A stretch of 64,000 nucleotides of DNA from the NCBI GenBank assembly GCA_030429705.1, contig JAUIES010000001.1, forward strand, positions 1,674,001-1,738,000, in the 5' to 3' direction. Of the stretch, positions 29,288-53,588 are shown one piece after another. Position 1 is the stretch's first letter. Each line of letters opens with the position of its first letter. The translations under genes were made by a program, and so were the position numbers. This DNA is from Phycisphaerae bacterium (GTDB lineage: Bacteria > Planctomycetota > Phycisphaerae > Phycisphaerales > UBA1924). The notes under the pieces were generated by a model. It saw only the letters and a program-made list of their open reading frames with translations, was not told the DNA's origin and made no database searches.

Positions 29288-29318
29288 CCCGCTTCGCTCC
29301 AACACGAAAATCACACGC

Positions 29319-29347: not shown

Positions 29348-29453
29348 CAATTCAGGTCATGCGATGTCCGTATGCACCGATCTTGACCTGGTGCATTCGC
29401 AGTTGCAGAATCACCCCGGGCGAGATCGTCACGCAACCGCGGACGATGGCACG

Positions 29454-29483
29454 AAAAAACCCGCTCTCACGAGGAGAGCGGGT
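29454..29483 (-). terminator. rho-independent terminator of lamin-tail PEP-CTERM gene
   Basis: A 10-bp stem ACCCGCTCTC/GAGAGCGGGT (29459-29483, 5-nt loop) with a T-run (29454-29459 on the + strand as A) at the 3' side on the - strand. It lies 32 bp beyond the gene's stop. Confidence 0.88.
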
Positions 29484-29514
29484 CGTTCTTTGTGTTCTAA
29501 GAGTCTGGGTCAGG

Positions 29515-30189: not shown

Positions 30190-30470
30190 TCCACTCTCCC
30201 TGAACTAAATACCTAAAATCTTCTCACACCCAGCCGCGCATGGCGGGCCATAAGTCAATAGGTACACCAGGATCCGAGAATCGGTAGCAACTTTGCGGTT
30301 TGCACGCCCTTTTCAGGCGGGTCTTCGCAGAGTTTTGACCAACTCGTCCTTTCTCCCGCTTTTTGGCTTCAAAATTGCATCGCGTCAATGTCCGGTAACC
30401 CATTGCTACGACCGAGCCTCTTCAAGTTCAAGATCCATCGATTCGAGCCAACCAATCACGCGAGCGCATG
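30190..30470. other. intergenic region between two exported protein genes
   Basis: About 280 bp without a gene between the PEP-CTERM-like gene start (30189) and the terminator of the metallopeptidase gene (30471). The part near 30200-30225 is AT-rich, as expected for the promoter of the - strand gene. I see no small ORF, RNA gene or repeat. Confidence 0.5.
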
Positions 30471-30502
30471 AAAAAGGGCGCTCTCTCTAAAGAGAGCGCC
30501 CT
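30471..30502 (-). terminator. rho-independent terminator of the metallopeptidase gene
   Basis: A 12-bp stem AGGGCGCTCTCT/AGAGAGCGCCCT (30475-30502, 4-nt loop) followed on the - strand by TTTTT (30471-30475). It lies 26 bp after the stop codon. Confidence 0.92.
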
Positions 30503-30527
30503 GTATGCGTAAAACAATGCGACGCGA

Positions 30528-32768
30528 TTATGGGCAGCCGTCGCTGAAGAGCGTCAGATACGCCTGCACATCGAAGAAGTCGAACACATCGTCATCAACG
30601 ATATCCGCGGACTGGTCCTGTGCTGCAAAGTCACCGAGGAAGTCTTGCACATCGAAGAAGTCGAGCACGCCGTCCATCACGCGGTCGGCTGCACAACCGG
30701 CATCGTCACACACAATGTCATCGATGCGAAGGGCATCAACACCCGCTTCGATGACCGAGTCATTCGGATTGTCCCAGGTGCTGAAACGAACCATGAACTG
30801 ATTGGTCAGCGACACATGGTCAAGGATGCGAATGCTCGATTCCATCCACGCCGAAGCGCCAGATGTCGTCGAGAACGCAAGCGTCCAACTCGCACCGTTG
30901 TTGTCTGACAACTCAACGGTGTACGCGTCGTCGCCGTCGCTGTCGTTACGAGCAAACCAATATGCGTGTGACATGACCGGGTCGACAGCACCCGAAAGGT
31001 CCATCGAAGCCGAGGTCAACCGCGTCGGGCCGCCATCAACATCCGAGTTACCATCGACATTGTCGGTGAGCCAGCACTGACCCGATCCGTCAAAGTCTGA
31101 CGCGGGGTCCCAACGGTCGCCGCCACCAGCAGGCACGCCGCGATCCCAGCCACCGTCGGTCAGATCGATGTTTTCAACTGTCCAACCTGGGGCCGATTCA
31201 AAGTCCATCGAAACGATGGTGTCCAGGCCGTCCACCACGAGTGCGCTGTACGCACCGCTGACCGGGCTGGTGTAGGTCTCGCCGTCGTCGCCAAGAGCCG
31301 AGAACGAGAAGGTCATTGTGCCGCCACAATCAGACGCTGGCACATCGATGCTGTATGAGTTCGCTGCGCCTTCCGTCATCGCGATCGAATTGACACCATT
31401 GCCAATGTCATAGTGGAACATGCCAGTTCCCGAAACCGGGTTGGTCGTTGTCACGCTCGAGACATCCATCGTGATCGTCGTCGAGCCGTCAGGGGCGATC
31501 TGAGTCGGGATACCACTCGGGAAGTCAAAGTCCAAGCCTTCGCACGACAGATCACACGAAACGCCCGCCAATGTCGGCAAAATCTCGTTGTTGATCTCTT
31601 GCGGGTGGAAACGCATCAGAACATTGGAAAGTCCGCCCGGGCACAGGTGGCAATACGACATGATCGTGCCATTGGGGGTCACCGAGCAGTCACCACCAGC
31701 ACAGTTGTCAATACCGATGTCATGCGTGTGCGGCGCACCAATGTTGTGTCCGCCTTCATGCGACACCACCATGATGTCCCAGTTCTGGCTGTTGTTGTCT
31801 TCCGTGGGATACGGGAAGAACCCGTTCATGTTTGCGCTCAAGCCATAGTTGAACCCGCTATTGCAGATACCGGGAAGCCACGCAACGCCCCCGCCAAGTC
31901 CACGACCCGAGATGAAGTGACCAAGGTCCTTTTCAATAGCACCTTCGTTGGCTTCCCAGTAATCGCGGTACTGGAACAACTGATCCGTGGTGCTGCCGTT
32001 AGCAGTCCACGGGTCGGTCGTATCCCACAAACGCGAGAATGTGATCTGCACCGTCGTGAATACATCACGCGAGTAAATTTCAGAAACCGCACCGAACAGA
32101 GTCGCCAGGTAAGTGTTCGCAGCCGCCTGATCGCCACTGAACAACCCCAGATACTGCTCATCCGTTTCGACAGCAAAATCAAGGCTGTAGCAAACGCCGC
32201 CGCGCGTGTCATGTTCGACCACCGGTCCTGGCACCTGCACAGGTTGATCGAGTTGATCAACAGCACATTCCCACTGCGCCCAGTTGATCACGCCCTCAGG
32301 CAGCGTGGTCAGGTTGTACACACCAATCGGCAGATCCTGATCGAACGGCCCGGACGAAACAATCCAGGTCTGCCCCATCGTTTCGATGAACCCCTCAACC
32401 CCATACGGGCTGAACGCGAGGAACACGAGCGAGTCCGCATCGCCAGCGACCGAACCGCCGAACAACGAAACCTCCGGGCGATCCATTTCGATCTCACCGT
32501 CTTCGGTCACAACGACCAAACGGGCATCTTGGGCATAAACCTCGCGGCTCTCAAGATCGAGATCAACCGTTACATCATCAGAAAGGACAAAGTTGTCCAG
32601 TGTCACGCTGTCGAGCGTCTGCAGCACCTGATAGCCTGTGCGATCAAGCGTCAACGCAGTCATGACCTCTGTCGAGTTCTTCGCATCAACAAGTAACGGC
32701 GAACTGATCTCGGGCGAAGCAAAAGCCGCCGAGGCTGCTAGCAGGACCGATAACGATACCCTCTTCAT
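30528..32768 (-). CDS. reprolysin-like zinc metallopeptidase with dockerin-like tail
   Basis: A 746-residue secreted protease. A signal peptide (M-K-R-V then hydrophobic, A-F-A cleavage) is followed by a propeptide-like N-domain and a metzincin catalytic domain with H-E-G-G-H-N-I-G-A-P-H near residues 336-346 and a Met-turn region (G-T-I-M-S-Y-C). A beta-sandwich region follows, then the C-terminal tail: two DxxxDxxxFFDV repeats (D-G-V-L-D-F-F-D-V and D-D-V-F-D-F-F-D-V) ending G-C-P, the GC-type dockerin-like sequence of Phycisphaerae. AAGGGG precedes the ATG at 32768. Probably an extracellular protease anchored through the tail. Confidence 0.9.
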   Translation of the reverse strand: MKRVSLSVLLAASAAFASPEISSPLLVDAKNSTEVMTALTLDRTGYQVLQTLDSVTLDNFVLSDDVTVDLDLESREVYAQDARLVVVTEDGEIEMDRPEVSLFGGSVAGDADSLVFLAFSPYGVEGFIETMGQTWIVSSGPFDQDLPIGVYNLTTLPEGVINWAQWECAVDQLDQPVQVPGPVVEHDTRGGVCYSLDFAVETDEQYLGLFSGDQAAANTYLATLFGAVSEIYSRDVFTTVQITFSRLWDTTDPWTANGSTTDQLFQYRDYWEANEGAIEKDLGHFISGRGLGGGVAWLPGICNSGFNYGLSANMNGFFPYPTEDNNSQNWDIMVVSHEGGHNIGAPHTHDIGIDNCAGGDCSVTPNGTIMSYCHLCPGGLSNVLMRFHPQEINNEILPTLAGVSCDLSCEGLDFDFPSGIPTQIAPDGSTTITMDVSSVTTTNPVSGTGMFHYDIGNGVNSIAMTEGAANSYSIDVPASDCGGTMTFSFSALGDDGETYTSPVSGAYSALVVDGLDTIVSMDFESAPGWTVENIDLTDGGWDRGVPAGGGDRWDPASDFDGSGQCWLTDNVDGNSDVDGGPTRLTSASMDLSGAVDPVMSHAYWFARNDSDGDDAYTVELSDNNGASWTLAFSTTSGASAWMESSIRILDHVSLTNQFMVRFSTWDNPNDSVIEAGVDALRIDDIVCDDAGCAADRVMDGVLDFFDVQDFLGDFAAQDQSADIVDDDVFDFFDVQAYLTLFSDGCP

Positions 32769-32974
32769 AAGGTTCCCCTTCACAAAAAGTCAAAATGGGT
32801 GGACTCCCCGTCCCCTCTGTTCAAACACATACCACGATAACGAACTTACGGTTCCCTCTCAATTAAAACGGAACGCCTTCGCCTAGATCGACTCATTCAC
32901 GCTTTTGATCCAAACGATCGGGGCGTGTTCGTGCGATTTGGTTCCATACACTTCGCCGCGAACCTTCACCGCCC

Positions 32975-35900
32975 ATGCCCAACGACCCATACACAAAAAC
33001 CATGCAACGAGACCTCAAAAATCATCTCTTCTCGGTCCTCCTCATCTGCTTCATCGGGTGTCAGTCCTTCGCCCAGCCTGATCAGCCTCAAGCCCAGAAT
33101 CAGCCGGAAACAACCGCGCTCACGCAAGACCAGGTTCAAAAACAGATCGAAGCGCTCGAAACGATCGGAAATCTTGACGCTGCGACCAAAGAAGCCGCCT
33201 CCAACTTGTACCGCGAAGCCCTCGATGCACTCGCCCAGCGCGCCGAGTCGGCCGCCAAAGTCGCCGAGTTTGATCGACTCACAGCCGGCGCCCCCGAACT
33301 CCTCGCATCCATCCGCGCTGAACTCGCAAAACCCCCCGCACCGGTCCAACTTAACCTGCCCCAAGACCCCACGCTCATCCAGCTCGAGCAAGGTCTCAAC
33401 CAGGCCCAGTCTGTCCTTCTCTCAGCACGAACCGAATCAACCGAACTCGCCGCGGAGTCTACAAGGCGTGACGAGCGCCGCGAAGTGCTCGCCAACCGAC
33501 TCACCGAACTACGCAAAAAACTCGACGAAATCGAAGATACCATCAACGCTCAGGTTGCAACAGATGCATCGCCCGTCGCCAACGCCCAACGCACACTCCA
33601 GCAAGCCAGGCGAGAAGCTGTTCTCGTCGAGATTCAGGCATTCGAAGCCGAACGCGCCAGTTACGACGCACGCGTCGAACTCCTGCCCGCACGCCGCGAC
33701 CGCGCCGTTCGTCGTGTGACCGCTGCTCAAGCCGCGGTTGATGCCTGGCAAACGAAGGTCACGCAAGCCCGCAAAAACGAAGCAAGTGAAGCTGCAAACC
33801 AAGCCAGGCAACTCGCTCAGGAAATCGCCAGCACCTCGCCCGCACTCAAAGAATTCGCAGACGAAAACACACGCCTCGCCAATCTCCGCACCGGTACCAA
33901 TGGCACCACACAAACGCTTGATGCGCTTGCAAACAGCCTTTCGAGCACCCGTCAAGATCTCGTCCAACTCCGCGCCGGATACAACAGCGTGCAACGACGC
34001 ATACGCGCAGCCGCGCCCAACCGAGCAACCGGACTCCTGCTCCGCAATCAATACGCCGACCTGAAGAATCCCGTCCAACTGCGACAGGACCTGCGCACCA
34101 CGCAAAAGGAACTTGAAAAAGTCGAACTTCGACGCATCGAGTTACAAGAGCAGCGCGAGGGAGCAGGTGACATCAGCAAAGTCACGCAAGACCTGATCGC
34201 AGCCGTCAATGCTTCAGAAACCGATGGCCCCATCGACATGAGCGTGCTCGACGAATACGCACGCAGGCTCGCGACAAATCGTCGCGATGCGCTCGACAGC
34301 CTCATCGTCGATGCAAGCAAGGAATCCCAACTCCGAATCGATCTCGCAGCCATACAACAAACACTGCTCGATTCAACGGTTGCATATCACAACTACATCG
34401 AAGAACGCATCCTCTGGATTCGGAGCATCGCCGACGGTCAGTTCAACTTCGGTCGCTCACTCAATCAGGCTGGCGCGTGGTGTGCAGACCCAGGCGCATG
34501 GGGTCAAACGGTCAAACAGGTCTTGACCGATGCAAAGGCAAACCCATTTCGTCTGCTGATTGTCATTTTTGGAATCGTGCTGGCGTTTCTCGTACGGCGT
34601 TTCTCAAGAATAAAACTCTTCGAGTTTGCAGACCTCGTGCGAAGTTATCGCACCGATTCCATGCGATGGACTGCCCTTGGATTCATGCTCACCCTCGGGG
34701 CGAACTGCGCAATCCCGACGATTTTCATCCTTATTGCATGGCTGCTGCACGGGTCATCATCTGCCGAACCCGCTGTGGCAGCGATCAGCGCGTCAGTCCT
34801 CAAGACCTCGCCAATGATTGTGCTCGCGTTCTTTGCGTTCGCAAGCATGCGCACGCGCGGTCTCTTCGCAGCGCACTTTCGTTGGCCACAACCAACAGTC
34901 CGACACATTCGCAATCAGATGGCGTGGTATCTTCCAATCGTTGTGCCACTGGTTATTCTCGGCCACGCTATCAATAACGCAGGCAACGACGACTTCATCG
35001 CCTCCGCCGGACGCGTGGTCTTCACCACACACATGATTGCACTCGCTGTGTTCGTCATGCGTGTGTTTAAACCCGCAGGTCCGGCGATGGCCGAGTACCT
35101 CAGTCGACAACCGAATCGATTCATTGGCAAAACGGTCTACTTCTGGTACGGACTCGCGATCGGAATCCCACTGCTCTTCATCGTCCTGTCTTGGATCGGG
35201 TATCACTACACCGTCATTCATCTGTTCGCGCAGGTGCAGCAATCGCTCATGCTCGTGTTCACGCTCATCGTCGCATATGCGATCATGTCGCGTTGGCTCT
35301 TCGTAAACCGTCGACGCGTCGCAAGCGCAGCCGCCAAACGCAAGCGAGAAATGACGGAAGCCGATATGGCAACTTCTGCAGAATCAGGAGTCATCCTCGA
35401 AGAGGAAGAACTCAACCTCCCCGCGATCAGCGCACAGACGCAGCAGATCTTCCGTGCTGTCATCTTCATTTCTGCGATCGTCGGCCTCTTTAGTATCTGG
35501 TCGCCCGTCCTGCCTGCGCTTCGCATGCTCGATCGCGTCGAACTTTGGCCGCAGGTCAGAGTCGTTTCAGACACCGAAGACGAAGGCGTCCCGATACTCG
35601 AAACAACGACGCCGATTCAGGATGGCGTTGACGCTTCGCGAGCCAGCACATCCACAGTTGGTCAACCAACAGGCGATTCCAATCCCGGATCCACGGGGGG
35701 GACTGCACCAGGCACCACGCCAACGATCACACCCCTGACCACACCACTTTCGACAAACGGGTCAACAAAGCAGGCCGATACGGAATCCCCCGAAGAACCG
35801 CCACACATCATCACTCTGACAGAGGTGGCGCTGGCGATCGTGGTTCTGTTTGCAACCTGGCTTTCATTCCGTAATCTGCCCGGCCTGCTTGAGATCGTTG

Positions 35901-36667
35901 TTCTGCCAAGGCTCCCGCTCGATGCGGGAAGTCGTTACGCGCTCAGCACCGTCGTCCGCTACGCCATCGCCATCATCGGATTCAGCATCGCCTTCAGCGT
36001 CATCGGGCTCTCCTGGGGCAAGGTCCAGTGGCTTGCAGCAGCACTCACCTTCGGCCTCGCCTTCGGTCTCCAGGAGATCTTCGCCAACTTCGTCTCAGGG
36101 CTCATCATTCTCGCAGAACGCCCCATTCGCATCGGCGATTCAGTGACTGTAGGGGGGGTTACCGGGGATGTATCACGCATCCGCATGCGTGCGACGACAA
36201 TCCTCGATTGGGACAATAAAGAACTCGTCATTCCAAACAAGACCTTTATCACGGGCGATGTGATCAACTGGACGCTCACCGACCCCATCTTGCGTGCCAT
36301 CATCAATGTCGGCGTGTCATACAGCGCCGATGTCGACCATGTCGTTCGGGTCTTGAAGAAAATCGCGGCTGCAGAACCGACCGTCCTCCAGACTCCGCCG
36401 TCCACAGTGTTCTTCAAAGAGTTCGGCGATAGCACGCTGAACTTTGAATTGCGCGTCTACATCCCCTCCGTGCGCAACTGGGTCTCGGTCAAGCATGTGC
36501 TCAACATGACCATCATGAAGACCTTCAAGGAAGAAGGCATCGAGATCGCATTCCCGCAACGCGACCTCCACATTCGCTCAGCAGAATCACCTATTCGTAT
36601 CGTCCGAGAGCAAGTCGGTGGGCAGGACATCGTCACGCTCGAATCCGATCAGCCCCAGCCAGAGTAA
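32975..36667 (+). CDS. large mechanosensitive ion channel, MscK/MscM-like
   Basis: A 1230-residue MscS-superfamily protein. It begins with a signal peptide (about residues 10-33 after a short leader; ATG at 33002 is an alternative start), then a long periplasmic coiled-coil rich in Gln, Glu and Arg (about 40-480), several membrane helices (530-850), and the C-terminal pore module with G-L-A-F-G-L-Q-E-I-F-A-N-F-V-S-G-L and the beta-domain R-I-G-D-S-V-T-V-G-G-V-x-G. A Thr/Pro/Ser/Gly-rich low-complexity linker (about 868-945) interrupts the membrane region just before the last helices, unusual for this family. It should release solutes under hypo-osmotic stress. Confidence 0.9.
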   Translation: MPNDPYTKTMQRDLKNHLFSVLLICFIGCQSFAQPDQPQAQNQPETTALTQDQVQKQIEALETIGNLDAATKEAASNLYREALDALAQRAESAAKVAEFDRLTAGAPELLASIRAELAKPPAPVQLNLPQDPTLIQLEQGLNQAQSVLLSARTESTELAAESTRRDERREVLANRLTELRKKLDEIEDTINAQVATDASPVANAQRTLQQARREAVLVEIQAFEAERASYDARVELLPARRDRAVRRVTAAQAAVDAWQTKVTQARKNEASEAANQARQLAQEIASTSPALKEFADENTRLANLRTGTNGTTQTLDALANSLSSTRQDLVQLRAGYNSVQRRIRAAAPNRATGLLLRNQYADLKNPVQLRQDLRTTQKELEKVELRRIELQEQREGAGDISKVTQDLIAAVNASETDGPIDMSVLDEYARRLATNRRDALDSLIVDASKESQLRIDLAAIQQTLLDSTVAYHNYIEERILWIRSIADGQFNFGRSLNQAGAWCADPGAWGQTVKQVLTDAKANPFRLLIVIFGIVLAFLVRRFSRIKLFEFADLVRSYRTDSMRWTALGFMLTLGANCAIPTIFILIAWLLHGSSSAEPAVAAISASVLKTSPMIVLAFFAFASMRTRGLFAAHFRWPQPTVRHIRNQMAWYLPIVVPLVILGHAINNAGNDDFIASAGRVVFTTHMIALAVFVMRVFKPAGPAMAEYLSRQPNRFIGKTVYFWYGLAIGIPLLFIVLSWIGYHYTVIHLFAQVQQSLMLVFTLIVAYAIMSRWLFVNRRRVASAAAKRKREMTEADMATSAESGVILEEEELNLPAISAQTQQIFRAVIFISAIVGLFSIWSPVLPALRMLDRVELWPQVRVVSDTEDEGVPILETTTPIQDGVDASRASTSTVGQPTGDSNPGSTGGTAPGTTPTITPLTTPLSTNGSTKQADTESPEEPPHIITLTEVALAIVVLFATWLSFRNLPGLLEIVVLPRLPLDAGSRYALSTVVRYAIAIIGFSIAFSVIGLSWGKVQWLAAALTFGLAFGLQEIFANFVSGLIILAERPIRIGDSVTVGGVTGDVSRIRMRATTILDWDNKELVIPNKTFITGDVINWTLTDPILRAIINVGVSYSADVDHVVRVLKKIAAAEPTVLQTPPSTVFFKEFGDSTLNFELRVYIPSVRNWVSVKHVLNMTIMKTFKEEGIEIAFPQRDLHIRSAESPIRIVREQVGGQDIVTLESDQPQPE

Positions 36668-36695
36668 CAAGCTGAGATCGGCTATCCTTGCAGCT

Positions 36696-37142
36696 ATGAA
36701 TGCAGTCATGCTCGCTATTGGTGCCGGCTTGTGTTGGGGGGTCGGCGAAGTCGCCACGCGGTCGGTCTTGCACACAGGCAAGATCGGCCCGTTCGCAGCC
36801 GTCACCATTCGTTCATCGATCGCGCTCCCATTGATCTGGGCAGCATGGTTCGTCGCCAGGCGATTTAGCCAACTTGAAGCGAGAGGCATCGCAGATCTCG
36901 ACAGTGCAAACTGGCTGAAACTGGTCCTCGGCTCGGGCCTCATCGCCGGAGCCGCCGCGATGATCTTCTTCTACGCAGCCCTCTCCATTGGAGAAGTGTC
37001 GCGTATCAAACCCATAGCCTTTGCCCTTGCACCCGCCACCGGTGTGCTGCTTGGTTGGCTCATCCTCGGCGAGCCCATCAGTCCACGCAAACTGGCAGGT
37101 GTTGCGCTCATTCTGGTGGGTGTCGTCACGCTGACACGATAA
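36696..37142 (+). CDS. EamA-family transporter, single-domain
   Basis: A 148-residue membrane protein with about five hydrophobic helices and the EamA motif set: I-G-A-G-L-C-W-G near the start and the C-terminal R-I-K-P-I-A-F-A-L-A-P and L-G-E-P-I-S-P-R-K-L-A-G-V-A-L-I-L-x-G-V. Typical EamA permeases carry two such repeats (about 290 residues); this has one, like EmrE-size half-transporters that act as dimers. ATG at 36696 begins the homology; the frame open to 36618 overlaps the channel gene. It follows the channel gene by 28 bp and is likely cotranscribed. The substrate is unknown. Confidence 0.85.
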   Translation: MNAVMLAIGAGLCWGVGEVATRSVLHTGKIGPFAAVTIRSSIALPLIWAAWFVARRFSQLEARGIADLDSANWLKLVLGSGLIAGAAAMIFFYAALSIGEVSRIKPIAFALAPATGVLLGWLILGEPISPRKLAGVALILVGVVTLTR

Positions 37143-37162
37143 AACGATCCAAGAAACAAACC

Positions 37163-37200
37163 AAAAAGGGGGCTCAGGAAAAAAGACACCCAAGCCCCCT
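37163..37200 (-). terminator. probable terminator of the PEP-CTERM-like gene at 37.2 kb
   Basis: An 8-bp stem AGGGGGCT/AGCCCCCT (37167-37174 with 37193-37200, 18-nt loop) followed on the - strand by TTTTTGG. The stem is short and the loop large, so it is a weaker terminator than others here. Confidence 0.65.
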
Positions 37201-37224
37201 GCGCCATGTTGTTGTCGTGTCTGC

Positions 37225-37899
37225 TTAGCCTCGGCGACGCCGTGATATCATGAGACCTCCCGCGCCAAGCAAGCAGGCACTTGCAGGAGCCGGAATCAGG
37301 GTTGCTGTAAACAGGAAGTCCTGTGAGCCGCTCTGTCCGTTGTGAGGCTGGAACCAACCGCGGCCCACCCATGATGAGTTGTCCGGAAGGCGATGCCCGT
37401 CCGCCAGGAACAAGAACGCATTTCCAGCAGTGTCCGCCTTCGATGTCAGACTGAACGAGTCAGCCGGATTCGATGACGCGCTCCCGCCGTCGTCAACGAT
37501 CAGTGTTCCAGCGTCCGCCGAATCTTCTCCGACGGCAATCCAGCCGTTTGCTTCAGCCTGTACATTGAATGTGTATGTGAAGTTCAAGTGGTACGCACTC
37601 GGAGCAACATACCCCCCCGATCCGTCAACTTCACCGCCATACAGCATGCCAGCGATGTTGATTTCAATATTCCCGCCCGTGTCGGTATTGTCGGTGACGG
37701 TCAGTGTCGTGTTGTTGTAATAACCCATGCTGAAGGTCGCCACAGCGCTGCCACCAAACATGCCGTCATAACGAAGTCCATAGGGAGGCGGATTCTGGTT
37801 GCCATCCGGGTGATCGCCCAGTCGGTACTGCGTGACGGTTCCCGCGAACGAACAACCACACACGCCGGCGATCACGGCGCAACTCAAAAGTGCTTTCAT
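37225..37899 (-). CDS. PEP-CTERM-like exported protein
   Basis: A 224-residue exported protein. Signal peptide M-K-A-L-L-S-C-A-V-I-A-G-V with cleavage near F-A-G (residues 18-20). The mature part is Gly/Asn/Thr-rich with beta character and repeated aromatic residues; no catalytic motif. The tail, I-P-A-P-A-S-A-C-L-L-G-A-G-G-L then M-I-S-R-R-R-R, is PEP-CTERM-like. ATG 37899 is preceded by GGAGAG; the frame open to 37986 lacks a signal. Function unknown, presumably surface-exposed. Confidence 0.85.
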   Translation of the reverse strand: MKALLSCAVIAGVCGCSFAGTVTQYRLGDHPDGNQNPPPYGLRYDGMFGGSAVATFSMGYYNNTTLTVTDNTDTGGNIEINIAGMLYGGEVDGSGGYVAPSAYHLNFTYTFNVQAEANGWIAVGEDSADAGTLIVDDGGSASSNPADSFSLTSKADTAGNAFLFLADGHRLPDNSSWVGRGWFQPHNGQSGSQDFLFTATLIPAPASACLLGAGGLMISRRRRG

Positions 37900-38205
37900 C
37901 AGTTCTCTCCTCAAAATCAGTCCAAACAGACGCTGATCACCCAGCCACGCTCTGCATGACCAGGACGCGACCACCATACCACCCAAACAGGGTCAAAAAC
38001 AACTACTCTGCCACCAATATCTAAAAAATAAACTACAAGGCTCAAATAAAAGTCCTATAACTCACAGTGCACGACCACAGATTGTCCGATTTGATCGCGC
38101 AATCTCAGGTCCGCGCGCACGCAGCACTCGACCGCGACTTCATCAACCAGCAGTTTGAATCAGCCAGACCGAGGTGTTGTGAATCTGGGTCGTTTTAACC
38201 TGCGT
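37900..38205. other. AT-rich intergenic region at the strand-composition switch
   Basis: 306 bp with no gene. An AT-rich core (about 38012-38062) contains CTAAAAAATAAAC and TCAAATAAAAG. The + strand is strongly C-rich up to about 38160 (for 37981-38040, C16 and G6) and near parity or G-rich beyond it. No match to the DnaA box TTATCCACA or close variants was found by eye. It may hold the promoter of the - strand gene upstream of it, and is a candidate for a replication origin. Confidence 0.4.
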
Positions 38206-39168
38206 TCAGAACGGCCAGATCTCGAGCCCGTGCGGTGCGTGCCGAACATCCATCGTCAGGTTCACCTTCTTGATCGTCTTCCGAGCGACCGGGTCGTGAA
38301 CAGCGATCGTCGAGGGTGACGAGCCCGCGATGATCAATCCGTCGTCGGTCACACACAACCCGCGACCGAACCCTTGCCTGGCGATGTCACGAGGCAGGTT
38401 CGCGTTGACCAACTGTGCATCCGGATACTTTGGAATCTTGAGGCTGACGAGCGCTTTGCCTGATTTGTCGCCCCAGACGACCGCGTCGGCTTCTGTCGAG
38501 TTGTAGAGGAGGCCAGTGCGGAAGGGTCTGGCGTTGTGGGTCCAGTCTGGGACTTTGCCCATCGACCTGGTGGTGCCGTCGGGACTGAGTTCGAGGACAT
38601 CGTTGAGGCGGACACCTCCGATAAAGACTTTGCCGTTTTCGGCGAAGACATTGTTGATATGGAATAGATCGCGGATTGGCGGGCCGTTGTCGGCGTGCGG
38701 GTCGAACTGCTCGGTGCGATATTCAATCTCAGTGACGATTTTTCGCTTGACTTGTTTTTGAACGGGCTTTCCGATGAGCAGGTGGCCGACGGTGAAGGCT
38801 TGTGTCGCTAGGTCAAATTCGAGGATGGCATCGCGTTTGGTGCTGGTGAGGAGAAGTGTTTCGCCATTGGTGCAGATTTCGTGACACTGCGTGAGGTTTG
38901 CACATGGGAACGAGCGGCGTTGCTTGAAGTCCTGGTCAAAGACGAAGAGTTCGTCGGTGGCGGCGATGTAGATTTCGTTGTTGTGGAACGCGATGCCTCG
39001 GAGCCCTCGCATGCCGCCTCGGCCTTCGAAGTCGATCGCGCCGTCGTCCCAAGAGAGGACTTTGCGTGATTCGCCGGTTTCGAGGTTGACGAGGTGTGCG
39101 CCGCCATGGAATTGGCCCATGTGGGTCGAGCGGATGACTTCGGTGACGAGAACGGTGGGCAGTGGCAT
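38206..39168 (-). CDS. beta-propeller-like hypothetical protein
   Basis: A 320-residue protein without signal peptide or membrane segments. It has repeated beta-strand pairs (G-L-R-G-I-A-F-H, E-I-Y-I-A-A-T-D-E-L-F-V-F-D, K-V-F-I-G-G-V-R) consistent with a beta-propeller, and a distinctive I-N-N-V motif. It resembles the DUF4915/TIGR03032 class of uncharacterised proteins, but I would not assign it firmly. Its ATG is 9 bp after the stop of the NTF2-fold gene, so the two are cotranscribed. The + strand composition changes within this gene. Confidence 0.75.
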   Translation of the reverse strand: MPLPTVLVTEVIRSTHMGQFHGGAHLVNLETGESRKVLSWDDGAIDFEGRGGMRGLRGIAFHNNEIYIAATDELFVFDQDFKQRRSFPCANLTQCHEICTNGETLLLTSTKRDAILEFDLATQAFTVGHLLIGKPVQKQVKRKIVTEIEYRTEQFDPHADNGPPIRDLFHINNVFAENGKVFIGGVRLNDVLELSPDGTTRSMGKVPDWTHNARPFRTGLLYNSTEADAVVWGDKSGKALVSLKIPKYPDAQLVNANLPRDIARQGFGRGLCVTDDGLIIAGSSPSTIAVHDPVARKTIKKVNLTMDVRHAPHGLEIWPF

Positions 39169-39177
39169 GGGGTTAGA

Positions 39178-39615
39178 TTAGGGAGCGTCGGGCGGGCTTG
39201 CTGATGGGGTGCTTCGTGTGACGCCGACGCGATCGAGGAAGGTATCGAGGCGTTCGAGTTCGCCGGGGAGGTCGATGTGTTCGATGGTGTCGATCTGGTT
39301 TGCGTTGTTGAAGGTGAAAACCTGTTCGCACTCATGGCGGTGGGTGAGGCCGCGGTGGTCGGTGAGGTCGATGTAGCGGACGCGGAATCGCGATGGTGAT
39401 TCCTGCGTGAGTTGTGACTCGTAACGGATGCGGTCGAAACTGGTGCGGGCCCACTCGGCAGCGGCTCGGTATGACGCGATGATCTCGGTCGCAGATTGGA
39501 TGGTTTCCGATCGGATGGTGTAGACGCAGTCTGGCGCGAGCAGGGGCTCGGCGGCTGCGAAGTCTTCATGGTCGAGCGCGTGGACGAAGGCGCGGGCGAT
39601 GTCGGAGCGTTGCAT
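39178..39615 (-). CDS. NTF2-fold/SnoaL-like protein
   Basis: A 145-residue alpha/beta-cone (NTF2-like) protein: A-F-V-H-A-L-D-H-E-D-F-A-A-A-E-P-L-L-A-P-D-C-V-Y at the N-terminus is the usual helix and first strand of the SnoaL/ketosteroid isomerase-like fold, and residues 70-120 continue the sheet. The ATG at 39615 is the family start. A longer open frame to 39690 would start in a 59-bp repeat and is not real. It sits 9 bp before the propeller-like gene. The ligand is unknown. Confidence 0.78.
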   Translation of the reverse strand: MQRSDIARAFVHALDHEDFAAAEPLLAPDCVYTIRSETIQSATEIIASYRAAAEWARTSFDRIRYESQLTQESPSRFRVRYIDLTDHRGLTHRHECEQVFTFNNANQIDTIEHIDLPGELERLDTFLDRVGVTRSTPSASPPDAP

Positions 39616-39654
39616 GGCGTTAAGTGTAGTTGAATCGGGGTGCGCGAGGGAGTG

Positions 39655-39713
39655 GACGCACCCCCTCCGACCATCGCTGCGCTCGGCCACCTCCCCCGCG
39701 GGCGGGGGAGGGA
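39655..39713. repeat. 59-bp GC-rich inverted-repeat element, copy 1 (family R1)
   Basis: It is 56/59 identical to 40278-40336. The - strand begins TCCCTCCCCCGCCCGCGGGG, a palindromic CCCCCGC/GCGGGGG unit, and continues to GGTCGGAGGGGGTGCGTC. It lies 40 bp upstream of the ATG of the NTF2-fold gene. This class of GC-rich element is known from intergenic regions of many bacteria, though I cannot name it precisely. Confidence 0.85.
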
Positions 39714-39728
39714 TTGATACTGGAACGA

Positions 39729-40145
39729 TCAGGCCCAGCCGAGTTGTTTGAAGGAGTGGCCGTCGTTCCAGATTTTGGTCATGTGGTTGATTTTGTCGCC
39801 TTTGAAGTGCATGGCGTAGACATAGTTGGCTTCGACCGATTTGCCGGTGGGGGGGACCGGGCCGCCGTCGGCGGTGTGGGTGCCGTGGAAGACGCCGTAG
39901 CCAACGGCGCAGTTGCGATCTTCATCGACGGCGAAGGCTTTGATCTCGTAGGAGGCGTCGGGCGCGAAGGTGTAGAGGCCGGCCATCCAGTCTGTATAGC
40001 CCTCGAGGGTTTGCACATCTTGAAGGCCGTCGGCCTGGGCGGAGAAGGTGGCGCCTGGGTGGCAGTATTGCTTGCAGGTGTTCCAGCCTTGGCCGGTTTC
40101 GCAGGCGTCGAAGAACTTGAGGGCGGTGTCGTGCATGGGTGTCAT
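39729..40145 (-). CDS. SnoaL-like/ester cyclase-type NTF2-fold protein
   Basis: A 138-residue NTF2-like protein: A-L-K-F-F-D-A-C-E-T-G-Q-G-W at the N-terminus, then W-M-A-G-L and A-V-G-Y-G-V-F-H-G-T-H-T in the sheet, and H-M-T-K-I-W-N-D near the C-terminus, the signature of the SnoaL/ester cyclase group. The ATG at 40145 is used; the longer frame to 40313 starts in the same repeat as its neighbour's. It is distantly related to the NTF2-fold gene at 39178 and probably diverged within the family. Small-molecule cyclisation or hydrolysis is possible but not shown. Confidence 0.8.
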   Translation of the reverse strand: MTPMHDTALKFFDACETGQGWNTCKQYCHPGATFSAQADGLQDVQTLEGYTDWMAGLYTFAPDASYEIKAFAVDEDRNCAVGYGVFHGTHTADGGPVPPTGKSVEANYVYAMHFKGDKINHMTKIWNDGHSFKQLGWA

Positions 40146-40277
40146 GGTGAGTCCTTTTTGGGTTGGATTGTCGGAGAGTGTAGCGGGGATAGCCCTGGGT
40201 TGAATGATGGCTTGTTGGTGATCGGACTCCCTTGCGATTCGGGCTCGTTGGGTTGGGGCGCGACTCGTTCGGATTGG

Positions 40278-40336
40278 GACGCACCCCCTCCGACCATCGC
40301 TACGCTCGGCCACTTACCCCGCGGGCGGGGGAGGGA
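40278..40336. repeat. 59-bp GC-rich inverted-repeat element, copy 2 (family R1)
   Basis: Same element and orientation as 39655-39713, with three substitutions. It lies 133 bp upstream of the second NTF2-fold gene. Because of it, the open frames of both NTF2-fold genes appear to extend into the same M-A-E-R-S-D-G-R-R-G-C-V peptide. Confidence 0.85.
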
Positions 40337-40373
40337 GGACTGCTGGCTTGCGTCACTCGGCTCGTGGATGAAG

Positions 40374-40414
40374 GAGCACCGAGGTCCGAAGACGGACTTC
40401 GGTGGCACGGGTCA
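40374..40414. repeat. hairpin repeat R3, copy 1
   Basis: Contains GCACCGAGGTCCGAAGACGG then a hairpin CCGAAG-ACGGA-CTTCGG and ends GGTGGCACGGGTC. It is nearly identical to 40551-40591, and the flanks (CTCGTG, TGAA) also match. Confidence 0.8.
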
Positions 40415-40550
40415 GGGTGAGTTCGGTGTTTTCTCGTCGTGCTTGATGGTGAACCATGGCCTTGCATAGCCAAGACCATGCCACCCGCCTCTTGCCGGGT
40501 GCTTTGGGCATGAAGTTGCACAACCACGATTCGCTCGTGTGTGAATGGGG

Positions 40551-40591
40551 AAGCACCGAGGTCCGAGGGCGGACTTCGGTGGCACGGGTCG
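40551..40591. repeat. hairpin repeat R3, copy 2
   Basis: Second copy, with GAGG replacing GAAG at one side (GTCCGAGGGCGGAC), still able to form the stem imperfectly. It shares the core GGTGGCACGGG with gltX at 9618-9650 and, in diverged form, with R2. Confidence 0.75.
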
Positions 40592-40625
40592 AGGCCGCTT
40601 CGGCGCCACACAACCTCCCTTGCCA

Positions 40626-42452
40626 TCACCCCTCCCCGACATCGAGGACGGACATGAAGGCTTCTTGGGGGATGTTGACACTCCCGATGGACTTCATGCG
40701 GTCCTTGCCTTTTTTCTGTTTTTCGAGGAGTTTTCGTTTTCGGGTGACATCGCCGCCGTAGCACTTGGCGGTGACATCTTTTCGGTAGGCCTTGATTGTT
40801 TCGCGTGCGATGATTTTGCCGCCGATGGCCGCCTGGAGGGGGATTTCGAACTGGTGGCGGTCGATTTGTTTGCGGAGTCTTTGGAGGAGGACGCGGCCTC
40901 GGGCTTCGGACTTTTCGCGGTGTGTGATGAGGGAGAGCGCTTCGACGGGTTCGCCGTTGATGAGGATGTCGACCTTGACGAGTTGGTCGGCCTGGTAGCG
41001 GACGACCTCGTAGTCCATGGTGCCATAGCCGCTGGTGAGCCCTTTGAGTTTGTCGTAGAAGTCATAGATGAGTTCTGCGAGCGGGATTTCGAAGTTGAAC
41101 ATCTCGCGTGTGTCGGAGACATAGACCTGGCTTTTGTAGACGCCTCTTCGGTCGAGGCAGAGTTTCATGACATCGCCGATGTATTCCTTGGCGAGCATGA
41201 TCTCGACCTTGCAGATTGGTTCACGGATCTCGACGACGGAGCCCATGTCTGGGAGGTCGGCGGGGTTGTGGACTTCGCGTTCGGTGAGTTCGCCGCCTTT
41301 TCCTCGGACGACGATTTCGTAGGAGACGGTGGGGGCGGTTTGGACGAGTTCGAGGTTGAACTCGCGTTCGAGTCGTTCCTGGATGATGTCCATGTGAAGG
41401 AGGCCGAGGAACCCGCAGCGGAAGCCGAAGCCGAGCGCTTCGGAGTGGACAGCCTGGTAGGTGAAGGATGCGTCGTTGATGGCGAGTTTTTCGATGGCTT
41501 CGCGCATTTCCTCGATATCGCCGCCCTTTTTGTCGGCGGTGGTTGCGGGGTAGAAGTCGCAGAAGACCATTTGTTTGGCTGGTTCGTAGCCGGCGAGGAG
41601 TTCGTCGGCGGGGTTGTTGTCGAGTGTGATGGTGTCGCCGATGCGGACATCGCCGAGTGTTTTGATGGCTGCGACGACATAGCAGGTTTCACCCGGTCCG
41701 ACTTCTTTGACCTTGACTGGCTTGGGTGTATTTTTGCCGATCTCGGTGACGAGGAAGGTTCTCTCCATGCCCATCATGCGAATCTTGTCGCCGACTTTGA
41801 GTCGGCCGTCAAAGACACGGCAATAGAGCATGACGCCTCGGTAGTCGTCGTAGATTGCGTCGAAGATGAGGACGCGTGTTTTGTCAGATTTGGGGGGGCT
41901 TGGCGGCGGCAGGATTTCGCAGATGGCATCGAGGAGTTCGGGGATGCCGACACCGGTTTTGGCGGAGACTGAGATGCAGTCTTCGGCCGGTAGGCCGAGG
42001 ACCTGTTCGACTTCCATGGCGATTTCGTCTGGTCTTGCGCCGGGGAGGTCGATTTTGTTGAGGACGGGGATCATTTCGAGGTCTTGTTCGACCGCGAGGT
42101 AGGCGTTGACGACGGTCTGGGCTTCGACGCCCTGGGAGGCATCGACGACGAGGAGTGCGCCTTCGCAGGCTTTGAGGGCTCGGGAGACTTCGTAGCCGAA
42201 ATCGACATGGCCGGGCGTGTCGATGAAGTTGAGCATGTAGTTTTGGCCGTTGTGCATGTGCATAACGGTGACAGCGGATGCTTTGATGGTGATGCCGCGT
42301 TCTCGTTCGAGGTCCATTGAGTCGAGGAGCTGGGCCTTGGACTCACGATCTGAGACAGCTTTGGTAGCCTGGAGGAGTCGATCGGCGAGGGTGCTCTTGC
42401 CGTGATCGATGTGGGCGATGATTGAGAAATTTCGGATGAGGTTGCGGTCCAT
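40626..42452 (-). CDS. lepA: elongation factor 4
   Basis: A 608-residue translational GTPase that back-translocates or remodels stalled ribosomes. G1 is A-H-I-D-H-G-K-S-T (residues 13-21), then D-T-P-G-H and N-K-I-D. The LepA-specific C-terminal domain and C-D-F-Y-P-like stretch are present, and the length is that of the family. The ATG at 42452 is divergent from a sulfatase gene. Antisense frames to this gene are GC-driven shadows. Confidence 0.96.
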   Translation of the reverse strand: MDRNLIRNFSIIAHIDHGKSTLADRLLQATKAVSDRESKAQLLDSMDLERERGITIKASAVTVMHMHNGQNYMLNFIDTPGHVDFGYEVSRALKACEGALLVVDASQGVEAQTVVNAYLAVEQDLEMIPVLNKIDLPGARPDEIAMEVEQVLGLPAEDCISVSAKTGVGIPELLDAICEILPPPSPPKSDKTRVLIFDAIYDDYRGVMLYCRVFDGRLKVGDKIRMMGMERTFLVTEIGKNTPKPVKVKEVGPGETCYVVAAIKTLGDVRIGDTITLDNNPADELLAGYEPAKQMVFCDFYPATTADKKGGDIEEMREAIEKLAINDASFTYQAVHSEALGFGFRCGFLGLLHMDIIQERLEREFNLELVQTAPTVSYEIVVRGKGGELTEREVHNPADLPDMGSVVEIREPICKVEIMLAKEYIGDVMKLCLDRRGVYKSQVYVSDTREMFNFEIPLAELIYDFYDKLKGLTSGYGTMDYEVVRYQADQLVKVDILINGEPVEALSLITHREKSEARGRVLLQRLRKQIDRHQFEIPLQAAIGGKIIARETIKAYRKDVTAKCYGGDVTRKRKLLEKQKKGKDRMKSIGSVNIPQEAFMSVLDVGEG

Positions 42453-42540
42453 CGCGTGATGAGTTCCTGCTGTTGAGCGTGTGTAGGTGAGATTCGACAG
42501 GGATGCTAGGCTAGAGGGACGATCTGTTGGGAGGTTCTGG

Positions 42541-44034
42541 ATGAAGACGACGAGCTTGGCGACATTGGTGTTGGTGCTGGGGTGGGCGATGGGGTTGGTT
42601 ACCGGGCCGGTGTGGGCTCAGTCTGATCGGCCGAATATTGTTGTGATTCTGGCGGATGACCTCGGGATTGGTGATGTGGGGGCATATCACGCGGATGAGA
42701 GCAAGAGCAAGATTCCGACGCCTCGGATGGATGGATTGGCAGGCGAAGGGATGCGGTTTATGGATGCGCATTCGCCGAGTGCGGTGTGTACGCCGACGCG
42801 GTATGCGTTTTTGACTGGTCGGTATGCGTGGCGGACGCGGCTCAAGGCGTGGGTGCTCAATGGCGAGAGCCGTGCGTTGATCGAGCCTGGGCGCGAGACG
42901 CTGGCGTCGATGCTGAAAGGCAAGGGGTATCGGACGGCATGCATCGGCAAATGGCATCTTGGGCTCGGGCCGTTTGATGAGGAGAAGCCCAACGCGAAGA
43001 CGGATTTCAGCGGGGCGATTGGGTATGGGCCTCGGGAGGTAGGGTTTGACGAAGTATTTGTCATTCCGGCATCTTTGGATATGCCGCCGTATGTGTATGT
43101 GGATGGTGACCGGATCAACAGCCCGCTCACGAAGCAGACGCCGGGGAGCAAGCGGCGTTGGTCTGGGGGCGAGGGGTTTTGGCGCGCGGGTGCGGTCGGC
43201 GAAGATTTTGATTTTTACGAGTGCCTGCCTCGTGTGACGGAGCGTGCAGTTTCGTTTGTGAAGACGAGCGCTGAGGCTGAGGAGCCGTTCTTTTTGTATA
43301 TGCCTTTGCCGGCGCCGCACACGCCCTGGATGCCGACTGATGCGTTTCAGGGTGCATCGGAAGCGGGTTGGTATGGCGATTTCGTCGCTCAGGTTGATGC
43401 GTCTGTCGGGCGGGTGCTGGATGCGATCGATAATGCGGGCGTGCGCGAAAACACGCTGGTGATCGTGACTTCAGATAATGGTGCGCACTGGCGACCAGCG
43501 GATATTGAGGCGTATGGGCATCAGTCACATCTTGGGTATCGCGGGATGAAAGCGGATATCTATGAGGCCGGGCATCGTGTGCCGTTCATCGTGCGTTGGC
43601 CTGGGCGTGTGAAAGCGGGATCGACGACGGATGCGCTTGTCGGGCTGCATGATGTGTTTGCGAGTGTGCGCGAAATTGTGGGGTCGGATGTTGAACCTGG
43701 GAACGGCGAAGACAGTGCATCGTTCGTGGGTGTTCTGACTGGCGAAGAGGCGAAAGGGCGAGAGATGCTGGTGCATCACTCGGGGAATGGCACTTTTGCG
43801 CTGCGGTGGGGCGAATGGAAGTTGATTGAGGGATTGGGGTCGGGTGGTTTCACGAGGCCCGCGAAGCTCGAGCCTGCCGAAGGGCAGCCGGCGTGGCAGT
43901 TATACAATCTCGAGACTGATCCGGGAGAGACGACGAACCTGGCGTCGACGCATGCGATAGTTTTGAATCGGCTGCGCGTTGCTCTTCGAGCGATTCGAGC
44001 ATCGGGCGAGCAGGCTGAAGATGCGGATGATTGA
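42541..44034 (+). CDS. sulfatase, exported
   Basis: A 497-residue formylglycine sulfatase: signal peptide (residues 1-27, V-W-A cleavage), metal site A-D-D (38-40) and modification motif C83-T-P-T-R87, and later D-N-G-A-H-W and G-H-Q-S-H-L-G-Y-R-G-M-K. The motif differs from the C-A-P-S-R of the other sulfatase here, so the two belong to different subfamilies. The ATG at 42541 is used rather than the frame start at 42487. The downstream stress protein begins 39 bp later. Likely acts on a sulfated polysaccharide. Confidence 0.93.
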   Translation: MKTTSLATLVLVLGWAMGLVTGPVWAQSDRPNIVVILADDLGIGDVGAYHADESKSKIPTPRMDGLAGEGMRFMDAHSPSAVCTPTRYAFLTGRYAWRTRLKAWVLNGESRALIEPGRETLASMLKGKGYRTACIGKWHLGLGPFDEEKPNAKTDFSGAIGYGPREVGFDEVFVIPASLDMPPYVYVDGDRINSPLTKQTPGSKRRWSGGEGFWRAGAVGEDFDFYECLPRVTERAVSFVKTSAEAEEPFFLYMPLPAPHTPWMPTDAFQGASEAGWYGDFVAQVDASVGRVLDAIDNAGVRENTLVIVTSDNGAHWRPADIEAYGHQSHLGYRGMKADIYEAGHRVPFIVRWPGRVKAGSTTDALVGLHDVFASVREIVGSDVEPGNGEDSASFVGVLTGEEAKGREMLVHHSGNGTFALRWGEWKLIEGLGSGGFTRPAKLEPAEGQPAWQLYNLETDPGETTNLASTHAIVLNRLRVALRAIRASGEQAEDADD

Positions 44035-44073
44035 CATGACCTGGTTGAAAAAATGAGCAGGACCGAGGGCACC

Positions 44074-45000
44074 ATGCGTAACAACATTCAGAAAATTCGG
44101 CGCATACTGGTCACGACGGGGCTCACTGAAGAATCGGTGGGCGCGATTTTGATGGCGCGACAGTTGGCGGAAGAGTTGAATGCGGCGTTGCACGCGGTAC
44201 ATGTCATAGCGCCCGTGTCGGGCACCCATGAGCGCGCGGTCCCTGGTCTGATGGAACAGGTCGAGCGGACTGGTCGCGAAGCGCTCGAGGCGTTTGCCAA
44301 GGAACAAGGGCTGCGTGAGTTCGCGGAGTTGCATGTGGCGGTGGGGAACCCTGAGCAGGAGATTTTGTCGCTCGGGATTCACCTTGAAGCCGATTTGATC
44401 GTGATCGGTCGATGGGGGAAGGGCGGGCCGAAGCAGGGGATGTTGGGCAGTATCGCGCAGCGGGTCGTTCGGCGTTATCCGTTGAGTGTGTTGATTGTGG
44501 AGCCGACTTATCGAGGGTCGATCGCGCGGATCGCGGTCGCGAGTGCGTGTATCGATAGCCAGAATCTGGAACTCGAACGCGGTCTGGAACTGGCAACGAC
44601 GCTCGGGCACGATCGCATCTCGATGATCATGGCGTACGAGGTGCCTTGTGGGTATCACCTGGTGAGCGACTATGACGAAGCGGAGGCGAAGTTGCGAGAG
44701 GTGCACGAGGGGATTGCCCGCAGACAAATAGAGTCGGCCCGCGCGAATACGGGGGCGACAGTCGCTGTTGATGTCGTGGTTGAGGTTGGTCGACCTTCGG
44801 CGGTTTTGAGTGCGTTTGTCGAACGGGAGGGAGTCGAGTTGTTGGTGCTTGGTGCTCATACACGGAGCAGGCCGGCGGAGATATTTCTGGATCATGCAGC
44901 CGAGCGCATCATCAATCAAACGAACTGTAGTATCTGGGCGGAAAAGAACCCGATGGAGTCGCATCGACTTCGAGACCTTATCTTCGGGATTTTCAATTAG
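44074..45000 (+). CDS. tandem universal stress protein
   Basis: A 308-residue protein of two Usp domains. The first has the ATP-binding motif G-R-W-G-K-G-G-P-K-Q-G-M-L-G-S; the second reads G-A-H-T-R-S-R-P-A-E-I-F-L-D-H-A and is less canonical, suggesting only the first binds ATP. An ATG at 44053 is in frame; the one at 44074 has GAGGG upstream. It lies between sulfatase and YceI genes; a shared operon with the sulfatase is possible. Confidence 0.88.
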   Translation: MRNNIQKIRRILVTTGLTEESVGAILMARQLAEELNAALHAVHVIAPVSGTHERAVPGLMEQVERTGREALEAFAKEQGLREFAELHVAVGNPEQEILSLGIHLEADLIVIGRWGKGGPKQGMLGSIAQRVVRRYPLSVLIVEPTYRGSIARIAVASACIDSQNLELERGLELATTLGHDRISMIMAYEVPCGYHLVSDYDEAEAKLREVHEGIARRQIESARANTGATVAVDVVVEVGRPSAVLSAFVEREGVELLVLGAHTRSRPAEIFLDHAAERIINQTNCSIWAEKNPMESHRLRDLIFGIFN

Positions 45001-45020
45001 TCATTGACAGGAGTATTGGT

Positions 45021-45689
45021 ATGAGAAAATTAGGTAAAGCAGCGACGGTCGTTGGTCTTGCAGGGCTTCTGGTTGCAGCGGGTGTTGGGATGGGCATCGG
45101 GCCCAGTGCATCGACAGCGGCAGGTGAGGCTGTGTCCTCGGCTGCCATGACCGCTTCAACTGCGGCGACTTACAAGATAGATGCGGGTCATTCGGGCGTG
45201 CTGTTTCGGATCAATCATGCGAAGGCGGGCGTGTTCTGGGGTCGCTTTAACGAGTTGTCGGGGACTTATCAGATTGACCCCGACGATCTTGAATCGAGTT
45301 TCTTCAGAGTGACGGTGCCGGTGGCATCTGTTGACACGAACAGCGAAAAACGCGACCAGCACCTGAGGTCGGCTGACTTCTTTAATGCTCGCCAATATCC
45401 GGAAGCAACCTTTGCGAGCACAAGCCTTGTAGCGACGGACGAACCGGGCGTGTTTCAACTCAACGGCGACCTGACGATGTTCGGCGTGACCAAGCCGATC
45501 ACGGCGCGATTGCTGTACACCGGCGAGGGTGAGTTCCGCGGCTCAAAGACGAAGGGTTTTGAGGCTGAGTTTACCATCAAGCGAGAAGTGTTTGGCAACA
45601 CGACTTATCTTGCGCCAGATGGCTCGAACAATGGTGGACTTGGCAATGATGTCCGCATCATCGTCGCGGGCGAAGGTACGGCTCAGTGA
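45021..45689 (+). CDS. YceI family protein
   Basis: A 222-residue exported lipocalin-like protein. Signal peptide (residues 1-30, rich in Ala/Gly) is followed by a low-complexity Ala/Ser/Thr stretch and the YceI domain: Y-K-I-D-A-G-H-S-G-V-L-F-R-I, then D-T-N-S-E-K-R-D-x-H-L-R-S-A-D-F-F, and L-T-M-F-G-V-T-K-P-I. The fold binds polyisoprenoids or lipids in the periplasm. ACAGGAG lies at the right place. A strong terminator follows. Confidence 0.9.
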   Translation: MRKLGKAATVVGLAGLLVAAGVGMGIGPSASTAAGEAVSSAAMTASTAATYKIDAGHSGVLFRINHAKAGVFWGRFNELSGTYQIDPDDLESSFFRVTVPVASVDTNSEKRDQHLRSADFFNARQYPEATFASTSLVATDEPGVFQLNGDLTMFGVTKPITARLLYTGEGEFRGSKTKGFEAEFTIKREVFGNTTYLAPDGSNNGGLGNDVRIIVAGEGTAQ

Positions 45690-45717
45690 TCGAATGAGTT
45701 GTTCGATGAACAAACAG

Positions 45718-45748
45718 ACAGCCCGGTCATTCGATCGGGCTGTTTTTC
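45718..45748 (+). terminator. rho-independent terminator after the YceI gene
   Basis: An 8-bp stem ACAGCCCG/CGGGCTGT (45718-45743, 10-nt loop) followed by TTTTC. Confidence 0.85.
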
Positions 45749-45774
45749 TCGGGTTTCTGCAGGAATGGTGATTA

Positions 45775-46710: not shown

Positions 46711-46741
46711 GCGATCGTGGTGTGTTCGATACACTGGCGAC

Positions 46742-53583: not shown

Positions 53584-53588
53584 TCAAT

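What the first reader, a model, noticed from the sequence alone, without database searches (positions are those of the whole stretch)
38040..38580. GC-skew sign reversal near 38.2-38.5 kb independent of coding strand: candidate replication origin
Hand counts on 60-base lines show C>G on the + strand up to about 38.16 kb (1021-1080: C20/G10; 12421-12480 in a - gene: C20/G15; 34021-34080: C24/G11; 37981-38040: C16/G6; 38101-38160: C21/G13). Beyond about 38.46 kb G>C holds in both + and - genes (38461-38520: C16/G22; 38521-38580: C15/G23; 41341-41400 in a - gene: C11/G21; 46381-46440: C10/G26; 51541-51600: C13/G24). Because the flip does not follow gene orientation, it reflects replication or a rearrangement. 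A negative-to-positive switch is what a chromosome shows at oriC. An AT-rich stretch (38012-38062) lies at the switch, but no DnaA box was found and dnaA is not here, so an inversion breakpoint remains possible.
Basis: seen in the sequence. Interest (0 to 1): 0.8.

Follow-up and report, generated by a model that had tools for sequence, protein, structure and literature searches.

The report
Sharp DNA strand-bias flip, not oriC
The base composition of the two DNA strands really does flip sharply at this spot, but the chromosome's normal replication start lies about 0.55-0.6 million bases away, so the flip is most likely a rearrangement scar in a bacterial family whose strand bias is cut into dozens of pieces, with a smaller chance that it marks an extra replication start site.

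Summary
Observation confirmed. GC skew flips from -0.153 to +0.190 at window ~38.15-38.43 kb, equally in + and - genes; at 4-fold degenerate sites it flips from -0.43 to +0.46. Not the chromosomal oriC. The window is C4:1674001-1738000 of a 3.49-Mb Phycisphaerales genome. The cumulative GC-skew minimum of that contig is beside dnaA (C4:1171452). parB and a parS site are at C4:1096-1098 kb, where skew also turns from - to +. There is no DnaA box within several kb of 38 kb. parB sits beside parS in relatives too, often within 150 kb of dnaA. The flip lies inside a sharp-edged, strongly skewed block (~C4:1664-1791 kb) in the right replichore. It is most simply the junction left by inverting or moving 1664-1712 kb; relatives are heavily rearranged and one complete relative has >=27 such flips in 2.5 Mb. 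A real puzzle remains. Pooled over the family, the largest jumps are neg->pos only (8 vs 0; 7 vs 0 without this one), mostly in one relative, where parS-like palindromes tend to sit at the flips (6 of 7). Dispersed secondary origins are therefore not excluded.

The parts
38149..38430 (.). Skew switch point (combined GC+TA change-point interval); falls in the intergenic edge and the 3' end of the - gene 38206-39168
   Evidence: change-point fit; refit C4:1712367-1712508 (= window 38367-38508) for GC alone
1..38148 (.). Left arm: + strand C>G and A>T (GC skew -0.153; 4-fold-site skew about -0.43 over C4:1665-1712 kb); extends left to a sharp edge at ~C4:1664 kb, outside the window
38431..64000 (.). 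Right arm: + strand G>C and T>A (GC skew +0.190; 4-fold-site skew about +0.46 over C4:1712.5-1790 kb); extends right to a sharp edge at ~C4:1791 kb, outside the window
37900..38205 (.). Intergenic region next to the switch, with an AT-rich stretch 38012-38062; no DnaA box, parS-like site or repeat found
38206..39168 (-). Intact 320-aa protein of unknown family whose 3' end spans the switch; homologues in four relatives are not at a comparable strong flip
37225..37899 (-). 224-aa exported-protein-like ORF left of the switch (C-terminus resembles a PEP-CTERM anchor by eye; no Pfam hit)
40626..42452 (-). lepA (elongation factor 4), right-arm anchor gene used for synteny
32975..36667 (+). MscK-type mechanosensitive channel, left-arm anchor gene used for synteny

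Best explanation
The flip is a rearrangement junction, not an origin. The chromosome is replicated mainly from an origin region near parABS-dnaA (C4:1.10-1.17 Mb). The window lies in the right replichore, where rightward forks make the + strand G-rich. A ~127-kb block (C4:~1664-1791 kb) carries very strong skew; its left ~48 kb was inverted, or moved in reverse, so its sign is opposite to its replichore and a neg->pos edge was left at window ~38.2 kb. Shown: the flip, the block edges, the location of dnaA/parB/parS and the cumulative minimum, and the scrambled gene order and skew mosaic of the family. Inferred: the inversion itself.
For: The GC-skew minimum of C4 is at 1171452, beside dnaA; net G-C rises by 3975 from there to the window minimum with 98% of that interval read. 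parB is at C4:1097626, 1.5 kb from TGTTCCTCGTGGAACA; in all 11 relatives searched for parB it lies within about 2 kb of parS-like sites, and in 7 of them dnaA is on the same contig 28-150 kb away. Left-replichore bins are negative in 30 of 37 (P=0.0002). 4-fold-site skew shows three sharp edges, as an inverted left part of a + block predicts: 0.03->-0.52 at 1664 kb, -0.31->+0.76 at 1712 kb, 0.43->0.00 at 1791 kb. Left and right anchor genes are on different contigs in the closest relative and 2 Mb apart in a near-complete one. One complete relative has at least 27 neg->pos and 26 pos->neg changes in 2.5 Mb.
Against: Fast sites in the left arm are as strongly skewed as in the right arm, so an inversion would have to be recent. 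Inversions should give as many large pos->neg as neg->pos jumps. Pooled, the largest jumps (4-fold change >=0.8) are 8 up and 0 down, 7 vs 0 without the window; this is driven by one relative, and the own genome alone shows no significant asymmetry. No relative preserves the uninverted order, so the inversion is not demonstrated.
Confidence: 0.55

Rival explanations
1. Secondary (dispersed) replication initiation site. Forks leave ~38.2 kb in both directions; fork direction is invariant near the site and mixed further away, giving a sharp neg->pos jump and slower declines, as in N-shaped skew domains of eukaryotes or multi-origin archaea.
For: V shape with strongest 4-fold skew near the jump on the right (+0.62 near, +0.42 mid, +0.34 far) and a long slide into -0.54 on the left. 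Largest jumps in pooled family data are neg->pos only (8 vs 0, P=0.008; 7 vs 0 without the window); skewness of the skew derivative P=0.003-0.005 at 3-5 kb, 0.024 at 8 kb. In relative G047, parS-like palindromes lie at neg->pos changes in 6 of 7 cases (P=0.0015), two of them within about 20-120 bp of the jump.
Against: Asymmetry is carried mainly by one relative; own genome without the window P=0.26-0.39. Marker intervals in G047 are no shorter for up than for down changes (P=0.47). The block ends are sharp, not gradual. No DnaA box, parS-like site, shared motif or shared gene at the jumps of the own genome. Two parS-like sites share one marker bracket and the parS test was post hoc.
Confidence: 0.23
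2. Relocated origin-proximal block: the block 1664-1791 kb is the old origin neighbourhood, still carrying a fossil V, while the working origin/parABS now lies elsewhere.
For: It is the strongest and longest coherent V seen in the own genome, and it holds the cumulative TA-skew minimum of C4. Sharp outer edges fit a moved or isolated block.
Against: No origin-linked genes found in the part annotated; dnaA and parABS are elsewhere and parABS-dnaA proximity is shared by relatives. A fossil V should relax first at 4-fold sites, and it has not.
Confidence: 0.09
3. It is the active chromosomal oriC.
For: Negative-to-positive GC and TA flip, AT-rich stretch nearby, local minimum of GC and minimum of cumulative TA skew on C4.
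Against: GC-skew minimum of the contig at dnaA; parB/parS 616 kb away at another neg->pos turn; skew between 1.29 and 1.62 Mb is on average positive again; no DnaA boxes.
Confidence: 0.05
4. Assembly error: two stretches were joined in the wrong orientation at ~38.2 kb.
For: The genome is in 8 contigs and no reads were available; an inverted join would give the same V.
Against: The gene spanning the change-point is intact over its whole length, G+C matches on both sides, and similar flips occur in several independent genomes.
Confidence: 0.05

Closest known systems
Bacterial chromosomal origin (oriC) skew minimum
   Same: Abrupt negative-to-positive GC and TA skew change independent of gene strand
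   Different: Local GC-skew minimum only; 541 kb from dnaA and 616 kb from parB/parS; no DnaA-box cluster
Inversion breakpoints that interrupt skew within a replichore
   Same: Sharp sign change inside one replichore, matching sharp outer edges of the block, lineage with unconserved gene order
   Different: Skew amplitude in the block is far above the genome average, and large jumps in the family are biased to one polarity
N-shaped skew domains / multiple origins (human N-domains, multi-origin archaea; proposed double origins in some bacteria, Gao 2015, PMC4403523)
   Same: Sharp upward jump followed by decline, several per chromosome; one relative shows at least 27 in 2.5 Mb
   Different: Outer edges of this block are sharp; no initiator boxes; no evidence of firing. 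Gao 2015 required DnaA boxes and adjacent replication genes for its double-origin candidates

Membership tests
Bacterial chromosomal oriC | Negative-to-positive skew switch | tested here: met
Bacterial chromosomal oriC | Global minimum of cumulative GC skew | tested here: not met
   Contig C4 minimum at 1171452; window minimum about 4.0 thousand net G-C higher. Contig order for the rest of the genome is unknown.
Bacterial chromosomal oriC | Cluster of DnaA boxes | tested here: not met
   None with <=1 mismatch in C4:1708-1716 kb
Bacterial chromosomal oriC | dnaA, parABS or other origin genes nearby | tested here: not met
   dnaA C4:1169.6 kb, second dnaA 1295.7 kb, parB 1097.6 kb
Bacterial chromosomal oriC | AT-rich unwinding region | tested here: inconclusive
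   38012-38062 is 73% AT, but 200-bp windows elsewhere, including downstream of dnaA, are at least as AT-rich
Bacterial chromosomal oriC | Replication starts there in living cells | not testable with these tools
   needs read-depth or fork-direction data
Inversion breakpoint in a replichore | Paired sharp edges of opposite sense | tested here: met
   Edges at C4:1664, 1712 and 1791 kb
Inversion breakpoint in a replichore | Synteny break against a close relative at the junction | tested here: inconclusive
   Left and right anchors are separated in relatives, but relatives are other genera with almost no shared gene order
Inversion breakpoint in a replichore | Equal numbers of large V and inverted-V jumps across the genome | tested here: inconclusive
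   Own genome balanced apart from the window; pooled family data biased to V, mainly through G047
Dispersed origins (N-domains) | Excess of sharp upward over sharp downward jumps | tested here: inconclusive
   8 vs 0 for the largest jumps pooled; not significant in own genome alone; coarse marker map shows no difference
Dispersed origins (N-domains) | Shared cis element at the jumps | tested here: inconclusive
   parS-like sites at flips in G047; none at the window, no DnaA boxes, no significant k-mer

The most novel reading that the evidence does not exclude
Phycisphaerales chromosomes initiate replication at many dispersed sites besides the dnaA/parABS origin. Each site is marked by an abrupt neg->pos strand-bias jump (up to about -0.8 -> +0.7 at 4-fold sites in one relative), some carry parS-like palindromes, and the window's flip is one of them.
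Probability: 0.2. Interest if true: 0.95.

Novelty: new variant of a known kind. Interest (0 to 1): 0.45.

Why it matters
As a candidate oriC the finding does not hold, but checking it exposed something unusual: in this planctomycete family strand bias is extreme, independent of genes, and cut into dozens of blocks with very sharp reversals, biased toward one polarity in the one complete relative sampled. If the blocks are inversions, these chromosomes rearrange very often. If they are dispersed origins, the single-origin rule for bacterial chromosomes would have an exception. Complete genomes plus read depth would decide directly.

Tried and rejected
DnaA boxes at the switch: none. Repeats at the switch: none. 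tRNAs or Rfam RNAs in the window: none. Gene-orientation cause: rejected, same skew in + and - genes. Double-strand-break resection as cause of the V: rejected by reasoning, since deamination of the exposed 3' strands would give an inverted V. Old, half-relaxed inversion: rejected, because 4-fold sites are as strongly skewed in the left arm as in the right. Common k-mer at 18 up-jumps: nothing significant after many tests. Common gene at the jumps: none obvious by inspection. Homologues of the 38206 gene as a conserved marker of the flip: no comparable strong flip in four relatives. Papers on Planctomycetes skew, origins and multiple origins: nothing on this pattern found in the open library.

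Full report
WHAT WAS CHECKED. The hand counts are right (9 of 10 exact, one off by one G). GC skew of 2-kb windows is negative throughout 1-38 kb and positive from 38 kb to 64 kb. The change-point is 38282-38507 for GC, 38066-38454 for TA and 38149-38430 for both. The excursion is far beyond 10,000 block shuffles. Skew does not depend on gene strand: -0.151/-0.156 in +/- ORFs on the left, +0.206/+0.179 on the right. The switch falls at the edge of the 37900-38205 intergenic region and in the 3' end of an intact - gene (38206-39168).

WHERE IT LIES. The window is C4:1674001-1738000 of a 3.49-Mb, 8-contig genome; a relative found by protein search is labelled Phycisphaerales. I read about two thirds of C4 and nearly all of 1.10-1.85 Mb. 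The cumulative GC-skew minimum of C4 is at 1171452, beside dnaA. Between there and the window minimum net G-C rises by 3975 with 98% of bases read, so the window is a secondary minimum for GC. For TA skew the window is the minimum, by only about 195 bases relative to the dnaA point. Left-replichore bins are negative in 30 of 37; right bins are positive in 22 of 34.

WHERE THE ORIGIN REGION IS. Two dnaA genes lie at C4:1169.6 and 1295.7 kb. parB is at C4:1097.6 kb, 1.5 kb from the only near-perfect parS in the genome (TGTTCCTCGTGGAACA, 1096104), and skew turns from about -0.05 to +0.07 between 1090 and 1100 kb. In all 11 relatives searched, parB sits beside parS-like sites; in seven, dnaA is on the same contig 28-150 kb away. 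The shared arrangement places the chromosomal origin/segregation region at C4:1.10-1.17 Mb, 541-616 kb from the window. No DnaA box with <=1 mismatch lies in C4:1708-1716 kb.

ANATOMY OF THE FLIP. At 4-fold degenerate sites the signal is much stronger: -0.43 in the left arm and +0.46 in the right, against 0.07-0.2 in three other parts of the contig measured the same way. The profile slides to about -0.54, then jumps to +0.36..+0.61. The strong block has sharp outer edges at ~1664 kb (0.03 to -0.52) and ~1791 kb (0.43 to 0.00). Three sharp edges are what results when the left part of a uniformly positive block is inverted. Both arms are equally strong at fast sites, so an inversion would have to be recent.

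RELATIVES. Gene order is nearly unconserved: left and right anchors (MscK, lepA) are on different contigs in the closest genus and 2 Mb apart in a near-complete one. In the single-contig relative G047 (70% GC), strand bias at 4-fold sites reaches -0.87 and +0.94 on the two sides of one flip. Two strongly polar oligomers used as markers show at least 27 neg->pos and 26 pos->neg changes in 2.5 Mb; some of these may be noise where skew is weak. Flips are therefore common in the family and cannot each be the chromosomal oriC.

THE UNEXPLAINED PART. Inversions should produce V and inverted-V edges equally. Pooled over 2.7 Mb, the largest 4-fold jumps (>=0.8) are 8 V and 0 inverted V (7 vs 0 without the window), and the skewness of the derivative is significant (P=0.003-0.005 at 3-5 kb, 0.024 at 8 kb). 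Most of this comes from G047; the own genome without the window is not significant, at lower thresholds the counts are about equal, and the coarse marker map shows no difference in sharpness. In G047, six of seven parS-like loci (<=2 mismatches) fall in neg->pos brackets (chance 25%, P=0.0015, two share one bracket), and two lie within about 20-120 bp of a sharp flip. This was noticed after looking, so it is a lead. The window itself has no parS-like site.

VERDICT. Observation confirmed; oriC reading not supported; rearrangement junction most likely (0.55); secondary origin possible (0.23). The V excess and the parS-like association are the parts worth following.

LIMITS. Relatives are unnamed and of other genera; contig order is unknown; about a third of C4 and most of the other contigs were not read; no reads were available. 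Human N-domains and multi-origin archaea are cited from general knowledge, not tested here.

Noticed in passing
G000 C4:1169648-1170127 and C4:1295657-1296133 (L001, L002); also 11 relatives: Every genome examined carries two DnaA-domain proteins (about 460 and 520 aa in the own genome). In the own genome both lie close to local neg->pos skew turns.
   Followed up: partly
relative G047, C1:732255 and 1976491 (in L131, L140): parS-like palindromes TGTTCCACGGGGAACA and CGTTCCTCGTGGAACA sit about 115 and 20 bp from sharp neg->pos skew flips, far from the parB locus at 1566 kb.
   Followed up: partly
relative G047, C1:1-20000 (L127): 4-fold degenerate sites change from about -0.8 to +0.9 skew across a flip near 7.6 kb (change-point interval ~50 bp), an extreme local strand bias.
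   Followed up: partly
G000 C5:1-40000 (L018, L105), C8:250001-270000 (L061) and C4:1455-1480 kb: Other strongly positive skew blocks (+0.16 to +0.23) without a negative partner in the sequence read; C5 declines from its contig end.
   Followed up: no
window 29515-30189 (-): Small protein with a lamin-tail (LTD) domain (Pfam E 5.9e-13).
   Followed up: no
window 19364-21058 (-): FHA domain fused to a type II/IV secretion ATPase (T2SSE), in a small cluster with seryl-tRNA synthetase that keeps its order in relative G067.
   Followed up: no
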